This document shows, in pieces, positions 53,617-64,000 of a stretch of DNA of 64,000 nucleotides. A model generated the notes under the pieces. It saw only the letters and a list, made by a program, of their open reading frames with translations. It was not told the origin of the DNA and ran no database searches. Each line of letters opens with the position of its first letter. Positions within the stretch are counted from its first letter, which is position 1. The translations under genes and the position numbers were made by a program. This DNA comes from Candidatus Korarchaeum sp. (GTDB lineage Archaea > Korarchaeota > Korarchaeia > Korarchaeales > Korarchaeaceae). The stretch spans positions 275,594 through 339,593 of the forward strand of contig JAWAID010000002.1 in NCBI GenBank assembly GCA_038888615.1, in the 5' to 3' direction.

Positions 53617-54057
53617 ATGGATCGAGAGATCAGCAGCGGCAGGATACCTCTTGACGAACATGAGTATCTCAGGTGGCTGAACTCGGCTAAGAGAACCTTA
53701 GAGTCCGCTTACGGCGATTTAAGTAGGGGAGATTACAACTGGGCTTGTTTTAAGGCTCAGCAAGCGGCTGAATTAGCTGTCAAGGCGTTACTGCGCGGTA
53801 TTGGCTCACCGTCCTACGGTCGAAGTGTAGCGAAGCTACTGATGAGCGTCGAAGCTAAGATCGGGGTGCCCGAGGGGATCATGCAGCGTGCTAAGACCCT
53901 TGACAAGTACTATGTACCCACGAGGTACCCTAACGCCTGGGCGGAGGGTACACCTCATGAGTACTACACGGAGCCTGATGCCACCGACGCCATTAATTGC
54001 GCGAGGGAGGTGATCTCTTGGATCGAGGGAGTATGGGGGTCCTTGAGGAGAGGATAA
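53617..54057 (+). CDS. HEPN domain protein (toxin or RNase-like partner)
   Basis: 146 residues, all-helical. DYNWACFKAQQAAELAVKALLRGIG is the HEPN core, and LDKYYVPTRYPNAWAEGTPHEYY the RYP segment of archaeal HEPN-MNT pairs. EPDATDAINCAREVISWIEG closes the fold. The R-x4-6-H RNase motif is not obvious, as in other HEPN proteins of this clade. Its 3' end overlaps the nucleotidyltransferase gene, giving the classic toxin-antitoxin or abortive-infection layout. Confidence 0.85.
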   Translation: MDREISSGRIPLDEHEYLRWLNSAKRTLESAYGDLSRGDYNWACFKAQQAAELAVKALLRGIGSPSYGRSVAKLLMSVEAKIGVPEGIMQRAKTLDKYYVPTRYPNAWAEGTPHEYYTEPDATDAINCAREVISWIEGVWGSLRRG

Positions 54058-54410
54058 GGGAGGAGGTATTGAGGAAGGCTAAGGAGTGGGCGGATGGCCT
54101 CCCATTCAAAGCCACGGTAATAATAGTGGGCTCGTATGCCAGAGGTGACTTCAACCTGTGGAGCGATGTCGACGTGCTGCTGATATCTGAGTTCGCTGGG
54201 AATCCCATCGAGAGGCTGAGGAGCTTAGATTATCCACCTGGATTCGATGTGATACCACTCACTCCAGATGAGCTCGTCAGACTGACCGACAGGAGGGATC
54301 CGCTGGTTTCAGAGGCGTTAAACGTAGGAGTCTTCCTGAGGGACGATTTAGGCATCAGGGAGAAGTTAAAGGAGATAGATGGCTCTCTAACCTCTCTAGG
54401 TTCTGAGTAG
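54018..54410 (+). CDS. MNT-type nucleotidyltransferase (antitoxin partner)
   Basis: About 130 residues. The polymerase-beta nucleotidyltransferase motif is intact: IIVGSYARGDFNLWSDVDVL, with GS and DxD that bind metal and NTP. MNT antitoxins AMPylate their HEPN partner. TTG 54018 is preferred because GGGAGGTGAT (54005-54014) precedes it at good spacing. TTG 53997 and ATG 54033 are alternatives. Overlaps the HEPN gene by 40 bases. Confidence 0.88.
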   Translation: MDRGSMGVLEERIREEVLRKAKEWADGLPFKATVIIVGSYARGDFNLWSDVDVLLISEFAGNPIERLRSLDYPPGFDVIPLTPDELVRLTDRRDPLVSEALNVGVFLRDDLGIREKLKEIDGSLTSLGSE

Positions 54411-55612: not shown

Positions 55613-55990
55613 TTACCCTCGGCACTGGGAAGCCCTCCTTACCAGTTCAATGAGCTCATTTATTTCCCTCTTCTCCAACTTCCTCAGTTGAAAGTAGAGA
55701 GCACATAGCGTTAAGTAATCCCCACCTATCCCACTCAACATACCTAGGATCCTTGAAGCAGCACACTTCAGGTTCTCTGTAGAGTTGATACGTTTACCCG
55801 AGAGCTTCACTAGGATATCACCAACGATCCTTGAGATGAAAGCCTCTCTCTCCTTGGAGGGATCGAGTCCCTCCCTGAGAGCGTACTCATATCTCCTGAC
55901 CAACCTGAAGGCCAGATCATAGATATCCTTACCCTTCTGGAGGATACCCTCCTCCCTTATAGCACCTGCCAGATCCTCGCAACAGTTCAT
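55613..55990 (-). CDS. small helical type III CRISPR-Cas protein (last gene of operon)
   Basis: 125 residues, all-helical. GILQKGKDIYDLAFRLVRRY and CALYFQLRKLEKREINELIE resemble Csm2/Cmr5-type small subunits (Cas11) that line the target RNA. Its start overlaps the preceding RAMP stop by four bases (ATGA). The N-terminal CC and C-terminal CRG cysteines are unusual. A second small helical protein is encoded at 58352, so the two may be different subunits. The Cas11 role is inferred from size and place. Confidence 0.65.
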   Translation of the reverse strand: MNCCEDLAGAIREEGILQKGKDIYDLAFRLVRRYEYALREGLDPSKEREAFISRIVGDILVKLSGKRINSTENLKCAASRILGMLSGIGGDYLTLCALYFQLRKLEKREINELIELVRRASQCRG

Positions 55991-56736
55991 CCGAACACCT
56001 CCTCGAACCTTTTTCCGAATTGATTTAGAGCTTTCTCGATGCTCTCCGAAATATCTATCTCCCTCTCATTACCGAGGACATCAATTGAATGGATCTTCAC
56101 CTCCTTGACCCTAACCTTTCCGAGTCCCTTGGGTTTCCCGAAGCCGAGAAGGAACACTTTCACGTTGCCTGGGACATAGCCCATAGCTAGCAGGAGCTTC
56201 GCGGTCTCCCCCTCAATGGGGTTGATTATAAGTACTTCTGACCTGAGGGTCGTTCCCTTGGGAATGCACTCTAAGAAGATCCCTCTTCCCATCTCTAGAC
56301 CCATATCGCTCCTGTAAATCTTGATATGTCCAGGTTTAGACATTTTAGGCTTCCAGCTGGGCCCCACCTCTACTATCTCCGGTCCCGCACATTCGACAGG
56401 GAGGGAATCCGAGAACAGAGCCCTGGACATGTAACCTGGGAACCCGAAAAGGTTTGATGTGGACTCTATATCTGCGGTCAACGCCAGGTAGTAGTGGGAG
56501 ACGACCCCCTTCAGAGTGGACCCGGGGATTATGAGCTCTCCTCCCCTCGATCTGGTGTTGAGCATGAGGGGCCCGTCGGAGTGAGGTTGAGCCCTCCCAC
56601 TGCCCACATGAACGGGGGATTCCGTTATGAGGGAAATCCCTATTCTATGGACCTCCCTTATCGAGGAATGCTTCTCATACCTCTGGTTCTTCTGCCTCTT
56701 CGTTTCTCCGACACAAACGAACTTGTATGAGCTCAT
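55987..56736 (-). CDS. Csm3-like Cas7 RAMP protein (third copy)
   Basis: 249 residues. RAMP ferredoxin-like fold with an N-terminal strand ISLITESPVHVGSGRAQPHS then DGPLMLNTR and the Csm3 loop GELIIPGSTLKGVVSHYY. The Asp in PHSDGPLM aligns with the Csm3 target-RNA cleavage residue (D33 in Streptococcus Csm3). The glycine loop near the C-terminus is LLGFGKPKGLGKVRVKEV. It is one base from the preceding RAMP gene. It likely forms part of the crRNA-binding backbone. Confidence 0.82.
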   Translation of the reverse strand: MSSYKFVCVGETKRQKNQRYEKHSSIREVHRIGISLITESPVHVGSGRAQPHSDGPLMLNTRSRGGELIIPGSTLKGVVSHYYLALTADIESTSNLFGFPGYMSRALFSDSLPVECAGPEIVEVGPSWKPKMSKPGHIKIYRSDMGLEMGRGIFLECIPKGTTLRSEVLIINPIEGETAKLLLAMGYVPGNVKVFLLGFGKPKGLGKVRVKEVKIHSIDVLGNEREIDISESIEKALNQFGKRFEEVFG

Positions 56737-56737
56737 C

Positions 56738-57565
56738 TCACCATCCCTCCAGTCCCTTCAGGAGCGGGTCGAGGCATCCCTCCACGGTGGCCCAGGGGAC
56801 CTTGGCTCTCAGGAAGGGAGGCAAGTCCTCATAAACCGAGCATTCAAGATTGTATCCTGAGATAGAATCCCTCAATAGGATCATTTTATCCTTCTTCTCA
56901 GCATCCAGATCTACCTCTTTATTACAATTTGGTAATGCGAGTTTGAAGGATACTTTTTCCATGTGGGAAGGCCATGTTAACATCATCGAGACATCGGAGA
57001 GACTGATAGAGATGCGTCCATAGCCCCTGCTCTTCGACCTCCCCAGCCTAGCTATCCCCGCATCAGCTTGCCTGATCACGGGGGAGAGTAGGGATAGGAA
57101 GGACGGAGGGAGGTTCCTGAATGAGATATCACATGAGAACTTAGCACCGGGCTCAACATACTCTTGAATGAAGGGTCCGTGCTTCACACCCATCGTCTCA
57201 GGGCTCAGCTTCACGTGCTCCCTGATCCCTACTATCGTACAGGGCTCCTCGGCCAACGCGTCATCGAACATGAGCCTAGAGCCGCAGGGTTCCGGTTCAA
57301 TCGTTCCGAAGATATCACTGACGAGCATATCCCACTTATTGAGTTTGAGAGAGGAGAGTGTTCTCTCAACCCAGGCCCTGAAGAACCCCTTGAGCGTGGA
57401 TCCCGGTATTATCGGCATTCCCCTGGAATCCCTAAGCAGGGGTATGTCTGGGGATAAGGGATCCAATGGGCTCCCACCGGATCCAATGGTCAGGGGGGAT
57501 CTCGCCTCTATCTCGCATTTAACAACCCCGGAGATGAATATCGCCTCGAGAACTGGAGCTGTCAT
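56738..57565 (-). CDS. Csm3-like Cas7 RAMP protein (second copy)
   Basis: About 275 residues from ATG 57565, which follows GAGGTGAT at eight-base spacing. The ORF extends to 57586. VKCEIEARSPLTIGSGGSPL then SPDIPLLRD and GMPIIPGSTLKGFFRAWVE is the Csm3 pattern, with the cleavage-type Asp in SPDIP. C-terminal GIARLGRSKSRGYGRISISL is the glycine-rich loop. It overlaps neither neighbour badly and is cotranscribed with the other RAMPs. The presence of three similar Cas7 genes suggests a fixed, asymmetric backbone. Confidence 0.84.
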   Translation of the reverse strand: MTAPVLEAIFISGVVKCEIEARSPLTIGSGGSPLDPLSPDIPLLRDSRGMPIIPGSTLKGFFRAWVERTLSSLKLNKWDMLVSDIFGTIEPEPCGSRLMFDDALAEEPCTIVGIREHVKLSPETMGVKHGPFIQEYVEPGAKFSCDISFRNLPPSFLSLLSPVIRQADAGIARLGRSKSRGYGRISISLSDVSMMLTWPSHMEKVSFKLALPNCNKEVDLDAEKKDKMILLRDSISGYNLECSVYEDLPPFLRAKVPWATVEGCLDPLLKGLEGW

Positions 57566-57575
57566 CAATATCACC

Positions 57576-58331
57576 TCACATGACATCGTTTAAAGTCGCT
57601 TCCCTAACATCCCCTTGAATGAGATCTCCTATCTTAGCCACCCTTATCCCTGATATCCTCACTATTACCCTCCCATAACCCCTACTCTTCCACCCACCTA
57701 TGAACCCCTCTATTCCCCTGCTGAGCAGTTTCAGGAGAAGCTTGAATGTATCATTAGCGCATGAAAACCGGGGGTCGCTCAGCTCATCAAATACCATGGT
57801 GAACTTGTACCTAGTCGGATTCCTGAGGTCCCCGTCCCTCTCCTTCGAAGCTTCCACATCACCGAGCATCCTACTCCTGGCGGCATCCCTCCCACTATCA
57901 ATGGATACGTGCGTCCTTCTGAGCGTCCCCAGGGAGCTATCGAGAGGTTCAGCGTCAGTTAACCTTACGAGAGATGCTAGGGAGAACGCCCTTCCGGAGT
58001 AACCGAACAATCTATCAAGCACGCAGAGCTCATCCAGTTCCTTGAGATCTATTTTGTTCTCGGATATGCTATCAACGCAGGGTTCCAGCTTAAGATTTAT
58101 CCCTTCCAATTCTAATTCCTTCCCTCCTGCGAGCTTATAAGCGAGAAGGAGCCCCGATAGGTACGACCTGAAGAACCCCTTAAGCGTGGATCCCGGTATT
58201 ATCGGAACTCCCCTGAAGTCCTTCAAGACGGGCAGGTCTATGGAGGAAAACGGGTCTCTCCCTGCCCCCACCCTCAGGGGCTCAAGTAATTCGATCTCGC
58301 AATCGACCCAAATTCTCCTCATGAGACTCAT
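57576..58331 (-). CDS. Csm3-like Cas7 RAMP protein (first copy)
   Basis: About 251 residues from ATG 58331, preceded by GGAGG. TTG 58346 (after GAGGTGAT) and GTG 58355 are alternatives. VDCEIELLEPLRVGAGRDPF then SSIDLPVLKD and GVPIIPGSTLKGFFRSYL is closest of the three to Csm3, with the cleavage Asp in SSIDLPV. GFIGGWKSRGYGRVIVRI is the C-terminal glycine loop. It follows the small-subunit gene with a four-base or shorter overlap. Confidence 0.85.
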   Translation of the reverse strand: MSLMRRIWVDCEIELLEPLRVGAGRDPFSSIDLPVLKDFRGVPIIPGSTLKGFFRSYLSGLLLAYKLAGGKELELEGINLKLEPCVDSISENKIDLKELDELCVLDRLFGYSGRAFSLASLVRLTDAEPLDSSLGTLRRTHVSIDSGRDAARSRMLGDVEASKERDGDLRNPTRYKFTMVFDELSDPRFSCANDTFKLLLKLLSRGIEGFIGGWKSRGYGRVIVRISGIRVAKIGDLIQGDVREATLNDVM

Positions 58332-58351
58332 CAAGCCTCCATTCAACTGGA

Positions 58352-58729
58352 TCACCTCACTAAATACTCAAGACCTTCCCTGTAAGCATTGTATAAGTAG
58401 ATACAGCTCGTCAGTATATACTTCGCCAAGATAAGCCTCTCCTCAACGCTCTGAACTTCATTCAGCTTCTCTAGTAGCTCCTTGACGAACTTGAAGAGGT
58501 CGTCATCGGGAGAAGCTTCCCTCGCCACGTAAATCACTTTGAGAGCGAAGAGATCCCAGTTCCTCTTCCTAATACAATCCTCTGCAGCTTTAAGCATGTT
58601 CCTCAGGTTACTCATCGTGATCTCCTTCCCCTCTTTCTCTCTTCCCCCCCGGCGAGGTATCCTTACTTCCCTCATCAGGGATTTAGCTATACTTACCGCA
58701 ACCATCTGGAGCTCCTCATCTGATCTCAT
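58352..58729 (-). CDS. small helical type III Cas11-like subunit (Csm2/Cmr5 type)
   Basis: About 125 residues from ATG 58729 (MRSDEELQMVAV); AGGAGGTG just upstream sets this start, and GTG 58741 is less likely. It is helical throughout: SNLRNMLKAAEDCIRKRNWD, EERLILAKYILTSCIYLYNA. Size and position between the Cas5-like and Cas7 genes match Csm2/Cmr5 small subunits. A basic patch RIPRRGGREKEGK may contact RNA. No signature motif exists for the family, so the assignment is contextual. Confidence 0.68.
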   Translation of the reverse strand: MRSDEELQMVAVSIAKSLMREVRIPRRGGREKEGKEITMSNLRNMLKAAEDCIRKRNWDLFALKVIYVAREASPDDDLFKFVKELLEKLNEVQSVEERLILAKYILTSCIYLYNAYREGLEYLVR

Positions 58730-59774
58730 CCCCAAGACCACCTCCTAGAACGGAGAGAGAATCGAAATGAATGTCATTATCAAAAAACACCATATCTAAA
58801 CCCTGAATCCTCCTAAGATTATCCGGGGGAGGAGTTAGCTCAAGCTCAACGGCCTTCTCGACGTCTGCCCTAGGGTAGACGAGTACGCTCCCGGGTCCCA
58901 TAAGCCTCCTGTATATGTAAAAATTGCCTCGAAACCATGACTTGAAGTTAGATACAATTACCTTCTCATAGATGGGCTCTTTTAATGCCGATAACACGCA
59001 CCTATCCGTGTGAGTCACTACATCAACCGTTAGGAAATCCTCATTGGAGTGCTTACCTATCTTATCCATCCTCCTCTTCCTATACTCCTCGAGGTTCAGC
59101 CATTCCTCCACCTTAACCTCGGAGAGCCCTAGGCCCTTCTTGATGGATGCACCTATCCTCACGGTCAGCTTGTCCCCGAGCGCCTCATGAACGCTCTCAT
59201 TGAGGAAAGCTATTGCGAAGAACCTGGATCCCGGCCTTATGATCTCCTCCGTGAAGAGGAGACCGTACTTCTCCTCTCCCACTTTCTCATAGGCATACGT
59301 CCTTCCCTCGTAATTCAACGCCACGTGCGTGTAAACCTCCTTCTCAGGGGGCCTGAATGCATCCTTCGTGCCCTTGAAGAAGAGGGGCTCTACCTTCCTG
59401 CTCAATGCCTTAACCTCCTTCAGTATGGAGGGACCATCTCTCATCGCTTTAGCAAACATCAGGGCTACTGAAACATACTCACCGCTTTCGCTTCTCGAGA
59501 TAGTAGCCAGGGGGAGGGGAGGGGGCTCTCCAAGCCTGAAAGGAGGAACCTTACCATCCCTGGAGCCCGGGAAAGCGTGGCTCATCCAGATACCTTCAGG
59601 TTTGCTGAGCTTTCCTCTCCTGATTAGATGTGAGAGTATCGCGCCTGAGAGCGTGGATGAAGGTAGGTAGGGAGGGCTGAAGTAATGCGCTCCCTTACAG
59701 TACTTATCCCTTATCACAAGAGGTTCTAGCGTCTCAACGCTCAGCAGAGCGACCCTATCAAAGCTAGATCCCAT
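58716..59774 (-). CDS. Cas5-like RAMP of a type III complex (Csx10/Csm4 type)
   Basis: 352 residues. N-terminal RVALLSVETLEPLVIRDK then AHYFSPPYLPSSTLSGAILS matches the Csx10/Csm4 RAMP start, where YIPGSTLRGA normally sits. KKGLGLSEVKVEEW is the glycine-rich region. It would cap the 5' handle of the crRNA next to Cas10. It overlaps the downstream small-subunit gene by 14 bases and the RAMP upstream by 11. The Csx10 assignment would place the system near III-D, while Csm4 would make it III-A. Confidence 0.72.
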   Translation of the reverse strand: MGSSFDRVALLSVETLEPLVIRDKYCKGAHYFSPPYLPSSTLSGAILSHLIRRGKLSKPEGIWMSHAFPGSRDGKVPPFRLGEPPPLPLATISRSESGEYVSVALMFAKAMRDGPSILKEVKALSRKVEPLFFKGTKDAFRPPEKEVYTHVALNYEGRTYAYEKVGEEKYGLLFTEEIIRPGSRFFAIAFLNESVHEALGDKLTVRIGASIKKGLGLSEVKVEEWLNLEEYRKRRMDKIGKHSNEDFLTVDVVTHTDRCVLSALKEPIYEKVIVSNFKSWFRGNFYIYRRLMGPGSVLVYPRADVEKAVELELTPPPDNLRRIQGLDMVFFDNDIHFDSLSVLGGGLGDEIR

Positions 59775-60360
59775 TGAAGCTCACCTCTTCAACGATGCCG
59801 TAGCCTATGGACGTCCATCCGCATACCCCCCAACCTCTGAGCGCATTCAGGGACTTTCTGAGCAGATCTTCCTCCTCCTCAGCAAGCTCTTCGGCTGAGA
59901 TCTTGAAAGTTACTTCAAATCTAGATGATATCGCTTGAGAGAAGAGTAAAGCTTCCCTCTCTACGGCTCCAAGCCTCCTGTTTATCCTTATCCTGGGCCT
60001 CAGCTCTATCCTTGAGTCGAGATCATCGCCTAAGTCTGAGGAGACTATCTCGAAGCTCAACTTCCCCTCCCTCGATGAGGGAGGAGCCACCTTCCCGGAT
60101 CCCTTGAGGCACCTGCTAGCTACATCGCTACCGAAGAGGCTCTCATAAGCCTCAGCTAGCTTAGGTTCTCTCTTAACCACGAGGCACGCTACCTGCCTTA
60201 GGGCGCCCTTGAACTGAGCGGGCGATATTGGAAACCTCACTACCCTATCCCCTACCTTCTTCTCATAGAGCATCATCCTGTAATCCTCCTTTCTCACTTC
60301 ATAGGATGGCTGGGCCGCCCTTATACCTCTAAACCTAATTCTGACACTGATTTCCCTCAT
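59764..60360 (-). CDS. RAMP superfamily protein, second gene of the Cas10 operon
   Basis: 198 residues. EISVRIRFRGIRAAQPSYEV opens a ferredoxin-like fold, FPISPAQFKGALRQVACLVV is the insertion/loop equivalent to the Csm3 PGSTLKG region, and LRGWGVCGWTSIGYGIVEEV is the C-terminal glycine-rich loop typical of RAMPs. No cleavage Asp is evident. It overlaps Cas10 by 26 bases. It could be the Csm5/Cmr6-like terminal Cas7 at the far end of the backbone or a system-specific subunit. Confidence 0.72.
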   Translation of the reverse strand: MREISVRIRFRGIRAAQPSYEVRKEDYRMMLYEKKVGDRVVRFPISPAQFKGALRQVACLVVKREPKLAEAYESLFGSDVASRCLKGSGKVAPPSSREGKLSFEIVSSDLGDDLDSRIELRPRIRINRRLGAVEREALLFSQAISSRFEVTFKISAEELAEEEEDLLRKSLNALRGWGVCGWTSIGYGIVEEVSFNGI

Positions 60361-62473
60361 ATAGATCCCCCCTTAACTTAGAAAGGTTCTCCCTAACGTC
60401 ACCACCTAGCTCGTTGTTCAATCTATCCTCCAATACGCTTAAGAGTGTGGAAAGTGTGTACAATGCCCTCCATACCTCGGGAGAGGGCCTCCCACCCACC
60501 ACATATCTGTAAACTTCCTTCATACATTCATAGACATTGCTCCTCTCGGAATCCAGCCCCCTTGCTATATCGCTCAACCACCTGAGGAGAGCTAGCTCAT
60601 AGTGCATCCTGCCTCCAGCCTCAGAAAGGAGATCCTCCATCACTTCCTTCAGGTCGGAGGAGGTGATAGCACCTCCATCGCAACCAATTGAGGTATCAAA
60701 CGCCTTGAGGATTGGGGATTCATCAGTTCCAATCCAGATAATGGATCTCCAGAGCCCCTCGATATCAGAGCCTTCCCTAACTCTGAACTTCTCAGGAAGT
60801 CCCCAGGAGGCCTGCTTAGCGTAGAGAATAGAGGCTTGCACGATGGAATCTCTCTGAAGCCCCATCCCTTTTATTACGTCCTTAGTGTACCTCATCATCA
60901 TGTGTGATGTATCATAGAGATATATCGCTGGTACCTTGGTCCTGGCCACTGTCACGCCCAGACTGATTCCTATCCTCCTGTCGCTTGGGATCGCTCCCAG
61001 CTCCCTAGCCCTCGATATAATCTCTTTCACCCTAGCCGCTAAACCCCTCACGAAGCTGACCACGTGCTCGGCCCTCAGTATGAGTAGCATGTCATCACCC
61101 GCAGCATAGAGTGGAGTTATGGGAATTAGGAAGTCGTAGGGCTTCGCTACCTGAGAGGTACGCATACTCGAGATAAGCTCCTCCAATTTCACGGATCTGA
61201 TAGCCCCGCTGATGAGGCCCTCTTCCATTAGGGAGCTGAAGAGAATCGAAAGCGCTATGAAGTCCATTAAAGACTCTGCCTCACTCTTAAGGGATCCAAA
61301 ACCATCTCCATCGGCACTTATCATAGAGATTAAAGCATTAGATTCCGGGTAATCATAGTCCTCCAAGTTCTTTATGAAGCCTGATGCTATATTCCGCCCT
61401 TTCTTTGTTATCTCTTCCCCAATCCTCCTGAATATCCTATAGCTGGATGATTCCTTAATTGCTTGAACGACTTTTCCGTTCCACTCCTTCTCAACATCTC
61501 TCCTTTGAAACTCGCTCTTCAGAATATCCGTTAAAATGAGCCCGTAGGAAGCTAAGATAAGGCAGCTCTGGCATATCCCCTCATCCGTCCTAATGCTACT
61601 CTTTAGCCACCTCACCTTATCCTCACTGGGGGAGAAGGAGTTCAATATGCAATCGACTGAGCTACCATCCAGTATTTTATCAGCTCTGCAGCTTCCGCAT
61701 ATTTTTGAAGGATCCATTTCTATTCTGTCGCTCGGTGACGTTATCTCCTTAGCTGAGGATAGCGCTAGGAGGTAACAGGAACCCAAGTCGCTGAGAAGAT
61801 CCTTAGCCTTTAGGATAGGCACATTCTTCCCATTCCCCTTAAGGATCAGGTCATTGGCTATCGGTATCTCCCGTATATGCCTTAACAATTCCCCCTCCAG
61901 TTCCTCAGCCACCTTAGGTGATGAGATGAAGACCAGCTCCCCCGCATCCCTCGTCAGGATGAACTCCTCACCCAATCTCTCAGCTAGGTAAGTGGAAGCG
62001 TATCTAGGTATTACGTCGACGAGCAAACTTGCCCCCCTCATCTCCCTCAACGCGCCATTCCTTCTCACCAGCTCCTGGATTGAGCCCACTTCGAGTACCT
62101 GTATCGTTATCTCCCAATCCCCCTCTCCCTTCCGAAGCAACTCGTATGAACTTTTGGCCTTATTGTAAAATTTTGGATTTTTATTAATATTTTCAGCAAT
62201 TTTATTGAATTTTTCTTCCTCAACTACGACCTTCAGTGAGGAGACCCTGACATCCCTCCACTCACAGCTCCTGGGATCCGAGACGGAAAGGGCAATCAGA
62301 GGAGGGAAGGTCCTTAACCTCAGGAGGCTCTCGAAGGTATCTCTATCTCCACCTCCTCCGATTAGCTGTTCTCTCAGTAAGTCGTTCAAGCGTTTGTAGA
62401 AACGATTGAGATCGGGCCTATCGGACTCCTCCCCAAGTGCCGAGAGGAGAACTCCCTCGAGGTCCTTCCTCAA
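60335..62473 (-). CDS. cas10: Cas10, large subunit of a type III CRISPR complex
   Basis: 712 residues. The first Palm-like domain contains RRNGALREMRGASLLVDVIP, typical of Cas10. A zinc ribbon (CGSCRADKI and ICQSC, about 258-306) follows. The second Palm has SMISADGDGFGSLKSEAESL and the nucleotide-cyclase motif AGDD (458-461) in LYAAGDDMLLIL, a GGDD variant expected to support cyclic oligoadenylate synthesis. No HD motif is visible in the first 130 residues, so DNase activity may be lost. Start TTG 62473, with a CTTTTTAAATAG box about 30 bases upstream. It leads an eight-gene overlapping operon. Confidence 0.9.
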   Translation of the reverse strand: MRKDLEGVLLSALGEESDRPDLNRFYKRLNDLLREQLIGGGGDRDTFESLLRLRTFPPLIALSVSDPRSCEWRDVRVSSLKVVVEEEKFNKIAENINKNPKFYNKAKSSYELLRKGEGDWEITIQVLEVGSIQELVRRNGALREMRGASLLVDVIPRYASTYLAERLGEEFILTRDAGELVFISSPKVAEELEGELLRHIREIPIANDLILKGNGKNVPILKAKDLLSDLGSCYLLALSSAKEITSPSDRIEMDPSKICGSCRADKILDGSSVDCILNSFSPSEDKVRWLKSSIRTDEGICQSCLILASYGLILTDILKSEFQRRDVEKEWNGKVVQAIKESSSYRIFRRIGEEITKKGRNIASGFIKNLEDYDYPESNALISMISADGDGFGSLKSEAESLMDFIALSILFSSLMEEGLISGAIRSVKLEELISSMRTSQVAKPYDFLIPITPLYAAGDDMLLILRAEHVVSFVRGLAARVKEIISRARELGAIPSDRRIGISLGVTVARTKVPAIYLYDTSHMMMRYTKDVIKGMGLQRDSIVQASILYAKQASWGLPEKFRVREGSDIEGLWRSIIWIGTDESPILKAFDTSIGCDGGAITSSDLKEVMEDLLSEAGGRMHYELALLRWLSDIARGLDSERSNVYECMKEVYRYVVGGRPSPEVWRALYTLSTLLSVLEDRLNNELGGDVRENLSKLRGDLYEGNQCQN

Positions 62474-62642: not shown

Positions 62643-63185
62643 ATGCCATCCGTTGGTGAATTGTGGAAAGAAGTCTTCTGCTCGTATACAAAGGACCTCT
62701 CGAGGATAAGGGAGTGGGCTGATTCCGTTTTCAAGAGTCCAGATGAGTCACTCGAGATCGCAAGGAAACTCACTAGGGCCTACGGTAGGTTCCCTGATGC
62801 CATAACCTTGGGATTCAGTCCCCAGGTCCTAGTCGGAGCTCTGGCCTTAAGGGACAATATCATAGCTGTGACGAGCCCCGAGGTCTGGAGGGGCGAGGGC
62901 CAGGGGGCCCTGTCCAAGGCCCTCCTCGACGCCTTCTCCGATAGGGTGAGGGTGGAGTTAGCACCCTTCGCCCCCTCGTCCGCCACCCCTCCGGACGAGG
63001 TAATAAGGGGGTTGAGAGAGGTCTTCGGAAAGCTAAAAGAGGAGGGGGTTAAGCTTCTCGATATATCAGGAGGGACCCAACTCGTCCCCATAGCGGCCAT
63101 CCTAGCTGGATTCAGGTCCTTCTCATACGCTTACCCGGATGGGAATTTCCTCTCTTTCTACGAATTCGAGATCGGGGGACCTTAG
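62643..63185 (+). CDS. stand-alone CARF-domain protein beside type III CRISPR-Cas
   Basis: 180 residues. After an N-terminal helical stretch (1-45), the fold reads as a CARF domain: strand AITLGFSPQ (about 54), NIIAVTSPEVWRGEG, VRVELAPFAPSSATP, and LLDISGGTQLVPIAAILAGF, with D140 and the SGGT loop matching the ligand-binding motif of CARF proteins. There is no HEPN, nuclease or DNA-binding domain in this chain, so it is either a cyclic-oligoadenylate ring nuclease (Crn1-like size) or a sensor acting through the next gene. Divergent from cas10, and the next gene starts one base after its stop. Confidence 0.8.
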   Translation: MPSVGELWKEVFCSYTKDLSRIREWADSVFKSPDESLEIARKLTRAYGRFPDAITLGFSPQVLVGALALRDNIIAVTSPEVWRGEGQGALSKALLDAFSDRVRVELAPFAPSSATPPDEVIRGLREVFGKLKEEGVKLLDISGGTQLVPIAAILAGFRSFSYAYPDGNFLSFYEFEIGGP

Positions 63186-63186
63186 G

Positions 63187-64000
63187 ATGGAGAGCTCGAG
63201 GAAGGTCTTTAAGTCAGTGAGCCTCTTCGATCCCGATATAGCTTACGCTCTATCTGATGCCATGGCTGAGTATGATTACCTCGTAGCGGATCGTGAGGAG
63301 AGCTTTCTGGTAGAGGATGTGAGCAGTGCAGATGAGTGGAAGAAGTGGCTGAGGAACATCTTCCTCAGCATATCCCTTCCTCAGATGCTTTTCTCAGCAG
63401 AGGAGGGAGTGAAGGGAGAGTTGAGGAAGCACATAAGGCCTTTAGAGAGGGAACTTCCAAATGAGAGCAAGCCTCATGATGAATGCGAAACTCTCTATAA
63501 GTTATGCCCGGAGTTCATGAATATGTGGTTCTTCTCAAACATGATTCTCTCCCCTAAGTTCTCCAAGGAGTATCTGAAAGAGCTGGAGGAGTCGCTATGT
63601 CACACCGAGGAACTCTCAAATATTTTAAATAAAAGGAGAGAAAAGATAAAAAATTTGATAGAAAATTCAGATAACTTTTTGATACTTCCCCAATTCGGTG
63701 TGGGAACCCATAGGATCTCTCAGATCGCGAAGTTCGTGAAAAACATCGTAAATTATAGGAAAAAAGATGTGAAAATCCTCCTAGGACTGAACAAACAGTT
63801 GATGGCTAGGCATGGGTGTGAGATAGGAGAGCTCAGGGAGGAACTGAAGAAGCTCGAGGTGAATGTGGAGGATGTTATGTTAGACCCAGATGATGAGAAG
63901 AATGTTGATGAGAAATTGAGATCCGGGAGTACTGTTGCGTTCCTTCTCCAGGATTACTCGAAGGAATTGGTTAAGAAATTGATAGAAATGGGCCTCGCAA
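63187..64000 (+). CDS. unknown protein cotranscribed with the CARF gene (incomplete at 3' end)
   Basis: ATG 63187 opens a frame of at least 271 codons that is still open at the window edge. The gene starts one base after the CARF stop, so the two are translationally linked. Visible parts: an acidic, helical N-terminal half (LFDPDIAYALSDAMAEYDYL, CPEFMNMWFFSNMILSP), a basic central segment (NILNKRREKIKNLIE), then FLILPQFGVGTHRISQIAKF, an alpha/beta stretch KKDVKILLGLNKQLMARHG and an acidic loop DPDDEKNVDE. No membrane segment. I do not recognise the family. It is the likeliest effector or partner of the CARF sensor. Confidence 0.75.
   Translation, partial: MESSRKVFKSVSLFDPDIAYALSDAMAEYDYLVADREESFLVEDVSSADEWKKWLRNIFLSISLPQMLFSAEEGVKGELRKHIRPLERELPNESKPHDECETLYKLCPEFMNMWFFSNMILSPKFSKEYLKELEESLCHTEELSNILNKRREKIKNLIENSDNFLILPQFGVGTHRISQIAKFVKNIVNYRKKDVKILLGLNKQLMARHGCEIGELREELKKLEVNVEDVMLDPDDEKNVDEKLRSGSTVAFLLQDYSKELVKKLIEMGLA

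What the first reader, a model, noticed from the sequence alone, without database searches (positions are those of the whole stretch)
62643..64000. Single-domain CARF sensor coupled to an unrecognised protein next to Cas10
Seen: a 180-residue CARF-type protein (SGGT loop, D140) with no effector domain and, one base after its stop, a gene of at least 271 codons that matches no family I know. Both are divergent from an operon whose Cas10 keeps AGDD and lacks HD. Established: type III Cas10 makes cyclic oligoadenylates that CARF proteins sense. Inference: the unknown gene is the effector or the CARF protein is a ring nuclease controlling it. This is the strongest candidate for an undescribed system here.
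Basis: partly seen in the sequence, partly recalled or inferred. Interest (0 to 1): 0.78.

Follow-up and report, generated by a model that had tools for sequence, protein, structure and literature searches.

The report
CARF-led orphan module beside archaeal Cas10
Next to an archaeal virus-sensing CRISPR complex lies a three-gene unit, one gene a small receptor-like CARF protein and two unlike anything searched, which probably acts on the alarm signal the complex makes, although no activity can be shown from sequence alone.

Summary
The 180-residue protein (A, 62643-63185) contains a CARF domain: comparison with archaeal CARF3 proteins scores 43.5, against 11.2 +/- 2.2 for shuffled sequence. 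It has no effector domain. The second gene (B) starts one base after A's stop; the genome contig continues past 64000 and completes it at 329 codons. The divergent type III-D-like operon has a Cas10 with AGDD and no HD domain. B and C have no convincing relative in Pfam, NCBIfam, PADLOC, PHROGs, PDB, phages, plasmids or some 800-900 archaeal genomes. In a related archaeon the orthologous Cas10 sits next to a CARF5 protein and a Csx1 ribonuclease, so A-B-C occupies an accessory slot. A keeps the motif-I serine of ring nucleases but has Gln where they have a conserved Lys, so I favour sensor over ring nuclease. What B and C do is unresolved; AlphaFold models were poor (mean pLDDT 43.5 and 38.1). 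Best reading: a cOA-responsive accessory module in which A senses and B and/or C act. New variant of a known kind; interest 0.5.

The parts
62643..63185 (+). Gene A: 180-aa single-domain CARF protein (about 48 N-terminal residues, then CARF; no effector domain, no wHTH).
   Evidence: ORF; hhalign to CARF3 alignment, score 43.5 vs shuffles 11.2 +/- 2.2; CARF_m2 29.3 vs max 20.9; PADLOC CARF3 E=0.001; motifs GFSPQ at 57 and DISGGTQ at 140
63187..64000 (+). Gene B, first 271 codons; complete gene is 329 codons, ending at window-equivalent 64176 (L003:8187-9176). Orphan. Gene C (385 codons, L003:9140-10297, window-equivalent 64140-65297) overlaps its end and lies outside the window.
   Evidence: no family over cut-off; coding-frame score
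62474..62642 (.). 169-nt divergent intergenic region with a TATA-like element for each operon (ctttaaaaag before A; ctttttaaatag on the minus strand before cas10).
   Evidence: Sequence read by eye; not tested experimentally
60335..62473 (-). Cas10, 712 aa, AGDD at residue 458, no HD domain.
   Evidence: Pfam Cas10-Cmr2_palm2 28.7 bits, cut-off 27; PADLOC Cas10 E=9e-18; motif scan
59764..60360 (-). Cas7-like (Csm3/Cmr4-like) protein, 198 aa.
   Evidence: PADLOC Csm3 E=8.5e-8
58716..59774 (-). Csx10/Cas5-like RAMP protein, 352 aa (assignment weak).
   Evidence: NCBIfam Csx10 E=9.6e-4, below cut-off; PADLOC Cas5_IIId E=1.7e-5, but Csm3 ranks above it at 6.4e-7
58352..58741 (-). 129-aa protein, putative Cas11 small subunit by position only.
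   Evidence: No convincing family match; inference from position
57576..58355 (-). Cas7 (Csm3-like), 259 aa.
   Evidence: PADLOC Csm3 E=2.3e-23; NCBIfam Csx7 E=8e-19, below cut-off
56738..57586 (-). Cas7 (Csm3-like), 282 aa.
   Evidence: PADLOC Csm3 E=3e-26
55987..56736 (-). Cas7 (Csm3-like), 249 aa.
   Evidence: PADLOC Csm3 E=3.6e-12
55613..55990 (-). 125-aa last gene of the Cas operon, unassigned.
   Evidence: No convincing match

Best explanation
A-B-C is a cyclic-oligoadenylate (cOA) accessory module of a divergent type III-D-like CRISPR system. Target-RNA binding would activate Cas10 (AGDD, no HD) to make cOA. The single-domain CARF protein A would bind it, probably as a dimer as other CARF proteins do, and pass the state on in trans to B and/or C, which would carry the defensive activity. 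Shown: the genes, their order, A's CARF domain, Cas10's motifs, and that accessory signalling genes hold this place in a relative. Inferred: cOA production and binding, the A-to-B/C coupling, and the activity of B and C, whose chemistry I cannot name.
For: A is a CARF protein by profile comparison. A, B and C are tightly packed in one direction (1-nt gap, 37-nt overlap) and score as coding. Cas10 keeps AGDD and lacks HD, so its immunity should rest on signalling; loci with a cyclase, no HD and no known effector are where Hoikkala et al. (PMC11229360) found new effectors. In G022 the orthologous Cas10 is preceded by a CARF5 protein and Csx1. A has Gln146 where ring nucleases have Lys.
Against: No enzyme fold or active-site motif is recognised in B or C. 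The module is known from one genome, so no conserved linkage of A, B and C can be shown. The genome also has a CARF5 protein and a (frame-broken) Csx1 elsewhere that could serve this Cas10. AGDD is not the canonical GGDD.
Confidence: 0.5

Rival explanations
1. A is a ring nuclease that degrades cOA and limits the response; B and/or C are effectors with their own unrecognised sensor domains (both poor models show Rossmann-like C-terminal halves).
For: A is a small stand-alone CARF protein like many ring nucleases and keeps the motif-I G-x-S (Ser59). C's last 126 residues hit only one PADLOC model, a CARF protein, at E=0.015, within its CARF part. In G022 the small CARF protein at this place has the SGGRK motif.
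Against: The motif-II Lys that is strictly conserved and needed in Sis0455 (PMC10018336) is Gln in A. C's CARF match was not reproduced by hhalign (score 14, shuffle mean 13). The genome already has an intact SGGRK-type CARF5 protein.
Confidence: 0.25
2. B and C are passengers with no part in signalling: fast-evolving genes of a plastic, partly decayed stretch between the cas operon and the CRISPR array; A alone is the CRISPR-linked gene, possibly without a partner.
For: No relatives of B or C were found anywhere. About 2.1 kb after C holds only short ORFs, suggesting decay nearby.
Against: A-B-C is compact, co-directional, from one apparent promoter, with intact reading frames and coding signal, which passengers under no selection would lose.
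Confidence: 0.2
3. A is a cOA-responsive regulator of the divergent operons, like the Csa3-type CARF proteins, rather than part of an effector pathway.
For: A's best CARF relatives are CARF3 proteins, many of which end in a winged-helix-like domain (by eye), and A is divergent from cas10.
Against: A stops after the CARF domain and has no wHTH or other DNA-binding domain recognised.
Confidence: 0.05

Closest known systems
CARF3 family (PADLOC CARF3--CARF; archaeal Csa3-like CARF proteins)
   Same: CARF domain with the strand-1 G-containing motif and the ISGGT/ITGGT motif; best-scoring CARF family for A
   Different: A has no C-terminal winged-helix domain and has an N-terminal extension of about 48 residues; full-family membership is weak (about 13% identity)
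CARF5 protein plus Csx1 (CARF9-HEPN) pair at the orthologous Cas10 in G022
   Same: Small CARF protein plus a larger accessory protein in the same place next to an orthologous Cas10
   Different: A is not CARF5 and lacks SGGRK; B and C are not Csx1 and no HEPN domain is found; in G022 the pair is co-directional with cas10, here A-B-C is divergent
Crn1-type CARF ring nucleases (Sso2081, Sis0455)
   Same: Stand-alone CARF, motif-I serine present
   Different: Conserved motif-II lysine is Gln in A
Type III-D CRISPR-Cas
   Same: Csx10-like Cas5, several single-domain Csm3-like Cas7, Cas10
   Different: Subunit scores are mostly below curated NCBIfam cut-offs; Cas10 orthologues seen in only two other genomes of 121

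Membership tests
CARF superfamily (gene A) | Sequence-profile similarity over the CARF domain, including the strand-1 and SGGT motifs | tested here: met
   hhalign prob 92%, score 43.5 over residues 54-163 vs shuffle max 22.5; second CARF family 29.3 vs 20.9; PADLOC E=0.001
CARF superfamily (gene A) | CARF fold and binding of cyclic oligoadenylate | not testable with these tools
CARF ring nuclease (gene A) | Motif-I serine after strand 1 (G-T-S of Sso2081) | tested here: met
   GFSP, Ser59 aligned with GLSP of CARF5 proteins (PMC10018336)
CARF ring nuclease (gene A) | Conserved motif-II lysine (Lys106 of Sis0455) | tested here: not met
   SGGTQ in A where CARF5 proteins have SGGRK
CARF superfamily (C-terminal part of C) | Sequence-profile similarity to CARF families | tested here: inconclusive
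   One PADLOC CARF_m2--CARF_LON hit at E=0.015, not reproduced by hhalign against CARF_m2 or CARF3 alignments
Csx1/Csm6 (B or C) | HEPN domain with R-x(4-6)-H | tested here: not met
   No HEPN hit in Pfam or PADLOC for B or C; no such motif in B; one REEKEH in C at residue 91, outside any predicted helix
Can1/Can2/Card1 (B or C) | CARF fused to a PD-(D/E)xK nuclease domain, recognisable by profile | tested here: not met
   No nuclease family in Pfam, NCBIfam or PADLOC; a very remote nuclease fold is not excluded
Csa3-type regulator (gene A) | C-terminal winged-helix domain after CARF | tested here: not met
   A ends about 15 residues after the CARF core; no Pfam hit
Type III-D CRISPR-Cas | Csx10-like Cas5 together with Cas10 and Csm3-like Cas7 | tested here: inconclusive
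   Cas10 and Cas7 clear; Cas5/Csx10 assignment below cut-off and mixed with Csm3

The most novel reading that the evidence does not exclude
A split signalling module: a stand-alone CARF receptor activates one or two effector proteins of a new family in trans, instead of through a fused effector domain.
Probability: 0.28. Interest if true: 0.8.

Novelty: new variant of a known kind. Interest (0 to 1): 0.5.

Why it matters
Characterised CARF effectors mostly carry sensor and weapon in one chain. A CARF protein alone, packed with two orphan proteins beside a cyclase-only Cas10, is a concrete candidate for a new effector family and for activation in trans, in a lineage (inferred Korarchaeota) for which one literature search (CARF + Korarchaeota + type III) found no paper in the library held. 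It can be tested by standard messenger-binding and nuclease or toxicity assays.

Tried and rejected
Weak hits of B in other genomes were inspected where an ORF could be read: copper P-type ATPases and ribosomal proteins, rejected as chance or compositional. DUF3867 (Pfam, E=2e-4, below its cut-off) has no function and was not pursued. AlphaFold single-sequence models of B and C are too poor to use; foldseek hits to SRP GTPases and to dehydrogenases and methyltransferases have query TM-scores of 0.28 or less and were rejected. I first read C's C-terminus as a second CARF by eye; profile comparison did not confirm it. Searches for relatives of A, B and C in viral contigs, plasmids (B, C), phages (B, C), genome contigs (B only) and archaeal genomes found none besides the genome itself; the fused A+B+C query used had no positive control in those genome sets. 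A scan with the Cas10 alignment found only the G004 contig already known.

Full report
Setting. The window lies in a 1.67-Mb, two-contig archaeal genome (G000:C2:275594-339593) of a phylum with only 29 held genomes. The only named relative, from the scan, is a MAG titled 'Thermoproteota archaeon'; I take the lineage to be Korarchaeota (inference). The contig continues past 64000, so the locus could be completed (L003; window position = L003 position + 55000).

Observation. A is 62643-63185 (+), 180 aa; B begins at 63187. B is complete at 329 codons (L003:8187-9176). A third gene, C, at L003:9140-10297 (385 codons from its first ATG; a later ATG at residue 20 is possible) overlaps B by 37 nt. 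Then come about 2.1 kb with only short ORFs and a CRISPR array at about L003:12431-14118, with 25 exact copies of GAATCCCGAAGAGGGAGTTGAAAG and a few variant ones. The annotated frame scores highest for A (0.39 bits per codon), B (0.14) and C (0.20), in the range of the cas genes next door (0.13-0.31). A 169-nt gap separates A from the divergent Cas10 gene, with a TATA-like element about 30 nt before each start (read by eye).

Gene A. PADLOC CARF models are its best hits (CARF3, E=0.001), but they are weak, so I built an alignment from 26 archaeal proteins fetched with the CARF3 model and compared A with hhalign: prob 92%, score 43.5 over residues 54-163, against 60 shuffles with mean 11.2, sd 2.2, max 22.5. 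A small alignment of CARF_m2 proteins gave 29.3 against a shuffle maximum of 20.9. A is therefore a CARF protein by sequence; the fold itself was not modelled. The aligned domain is followed by about 17 residues, leaving no room for an effector domain; about 48 residues precede it. Aligned with CARF5 and CARF3 proteins, A keeps G-x-S-P after strand 1 (Ser59) but has SGGTQ where the CARF5 proteins have SGGRK. The paper on Sso2081 (PMC10018336) reports that the motif-II lysine (Lys106 in Sis0455) is strictly conserved, that its mutation abolishes ring-nuclease activity of Sis0455, and that Ser11 matters in Sso2081. A thus fails one of two ring-nuclease residues; I weigh this as moderate evidence for sensing rather than cleaving.

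Genes B and C. Neither has a match over a curated cut-off in Pfam or NCBIfam, nor a convincing one in PADLOC, PHROGs or PDB sequences. The best sub-threshold hit is DUF3867 for B (E=2e-4). C's last 126 residues hit a single PADLOC model, CARF_m2--CARF_LON (E=0.015), at model positions 276-362. Positions from about 226 on appear to be the CARF part, because the ubiquitous matches of about 650 residues, which I take for Lon proteases, fall at about 93-228. A direct hhalign test with CARF_m2 proteins did not reproduce the match (score 14, shuffle mean 13). AlphaFold2 without relatives gave mean pLDDT 43.5 for B and 38.1 for C. Both show an alternating strand-helix C-terminal region, in B after a helical half, so Rossmann-like domains are plausible and nothing more. 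Neither has a strongly hydrophobic segment (maximum 19-residue hydropathy 1.44 and 1.15).

Distribution. No relative of A or C was seen in 121 near genomes, and the hits of B there that could be read were unrelated proteins. A fused A+B+C query found nothing in 774 further genome searches in other archaeal phyla, partly overlapping the first set. Scans of viral contigs, and of one genome for each of 84,980 species for B (close relatives only by design), found nothing. Absence at this sensitivity does not show that distant relatives do not exist.

Context. The Cas operon at 55613-62473 (-) encodes Cas10 (AGDD, no HD, no histidine before residue 199), four Cas7-like proteins, a Csx10/Cas5-like protein and small proteins: a divergent type III-D-like complex. 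Its Cas10 has orthologues in two of the other 120 genomes: G004 (contig ends at the gene) and G022 (fragment at a contig end, 48% identity). In G022 the gene is preceded by a CARF5 protein and a Csx1 CARF-HEPN protein, so accessory signalling genes sit in this position in a relative, and A-B-C holds the same place here. The genome has counterparts of both elsewhere: an intact CARF5 protein (243 aa) at C2:566.6 kb, and a Csx1 at C2:582.5-583.9 kb whose reading frame is broken into 360 and 122 codons. A second system, with an HD- and GGDD-positive Cmr2, lies at C2:598 kb beside an array with the same repeat.

Mechanism. Hoikkala et al. (PMC11229360) found new effectors by searching loci whose Cas10 has a cyclase and lacks HD and which have no known effector. 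This locus meets the Cas10 condition and has no known effector in the locus itself, although the genome has a broken Csx1 elsewhere. The simplest reading is a messenger-driven module: Cas10 makes cOA, A binds it, B and/or C act. What B and C do, and whether A controls them by contact, are not shown. Rivals: A as ring nuclease with self-sensing B/C (0.25); B/C as passengers (0.2); A as regulator (0.05).

Verdict. The finding is a new variant of a known kind, limited by being a single-genome case without a recognisable active site.

Noticed in passing
L050:1124-2538 (G000:C2:582465-583873): The genome's Csx1 (CARF-HEPN) homologue is split into two overlapping frames of 360 and 122 codons; a real mutation or an assembly error.
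   Followed up: partly
L049:1498-2229 (G000:C2:566631-567359): Intact 243-aa CARF5-type protein with SGGRK motif, 56% identical to the one beside Cas10 in G022; a likely ring nuclease far from the locus.
   Followed up: partly
L004 (G000:C2:590000-609000): Second type III (Cmr-like) system with HD- and GGDD-positive Cmr2, Cas1-like and Cas4-like genes by eye, and an array with the same repeat as the array next to A-B-C, suggesting shared crRNA processing.
   Followed up: partly
window 53617-54410: HEPN-domain protein followed by a nucleotidyltransferase-fold protein, arranged like a HepT/MntA toxin-antitoxin pair, beyond the 3' end of the Cas operon.
   Followed up: no
L003:10298-12430: About 2.1 kb between gene C and the array with only short ORFs; some fragments look by eye like a decayed TnpB transposon protein, but Pfam gave no hit on four fragments.
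   Followed up: partly
L017:10003-11985: G022 carries, beyond its arrays, a protein with weak SAVED-Lon/SAVED-TM matches (E=2e-6) and a second Csx1 HEPN-containing ORF cut by the fetched stretch.
   Followed up: no
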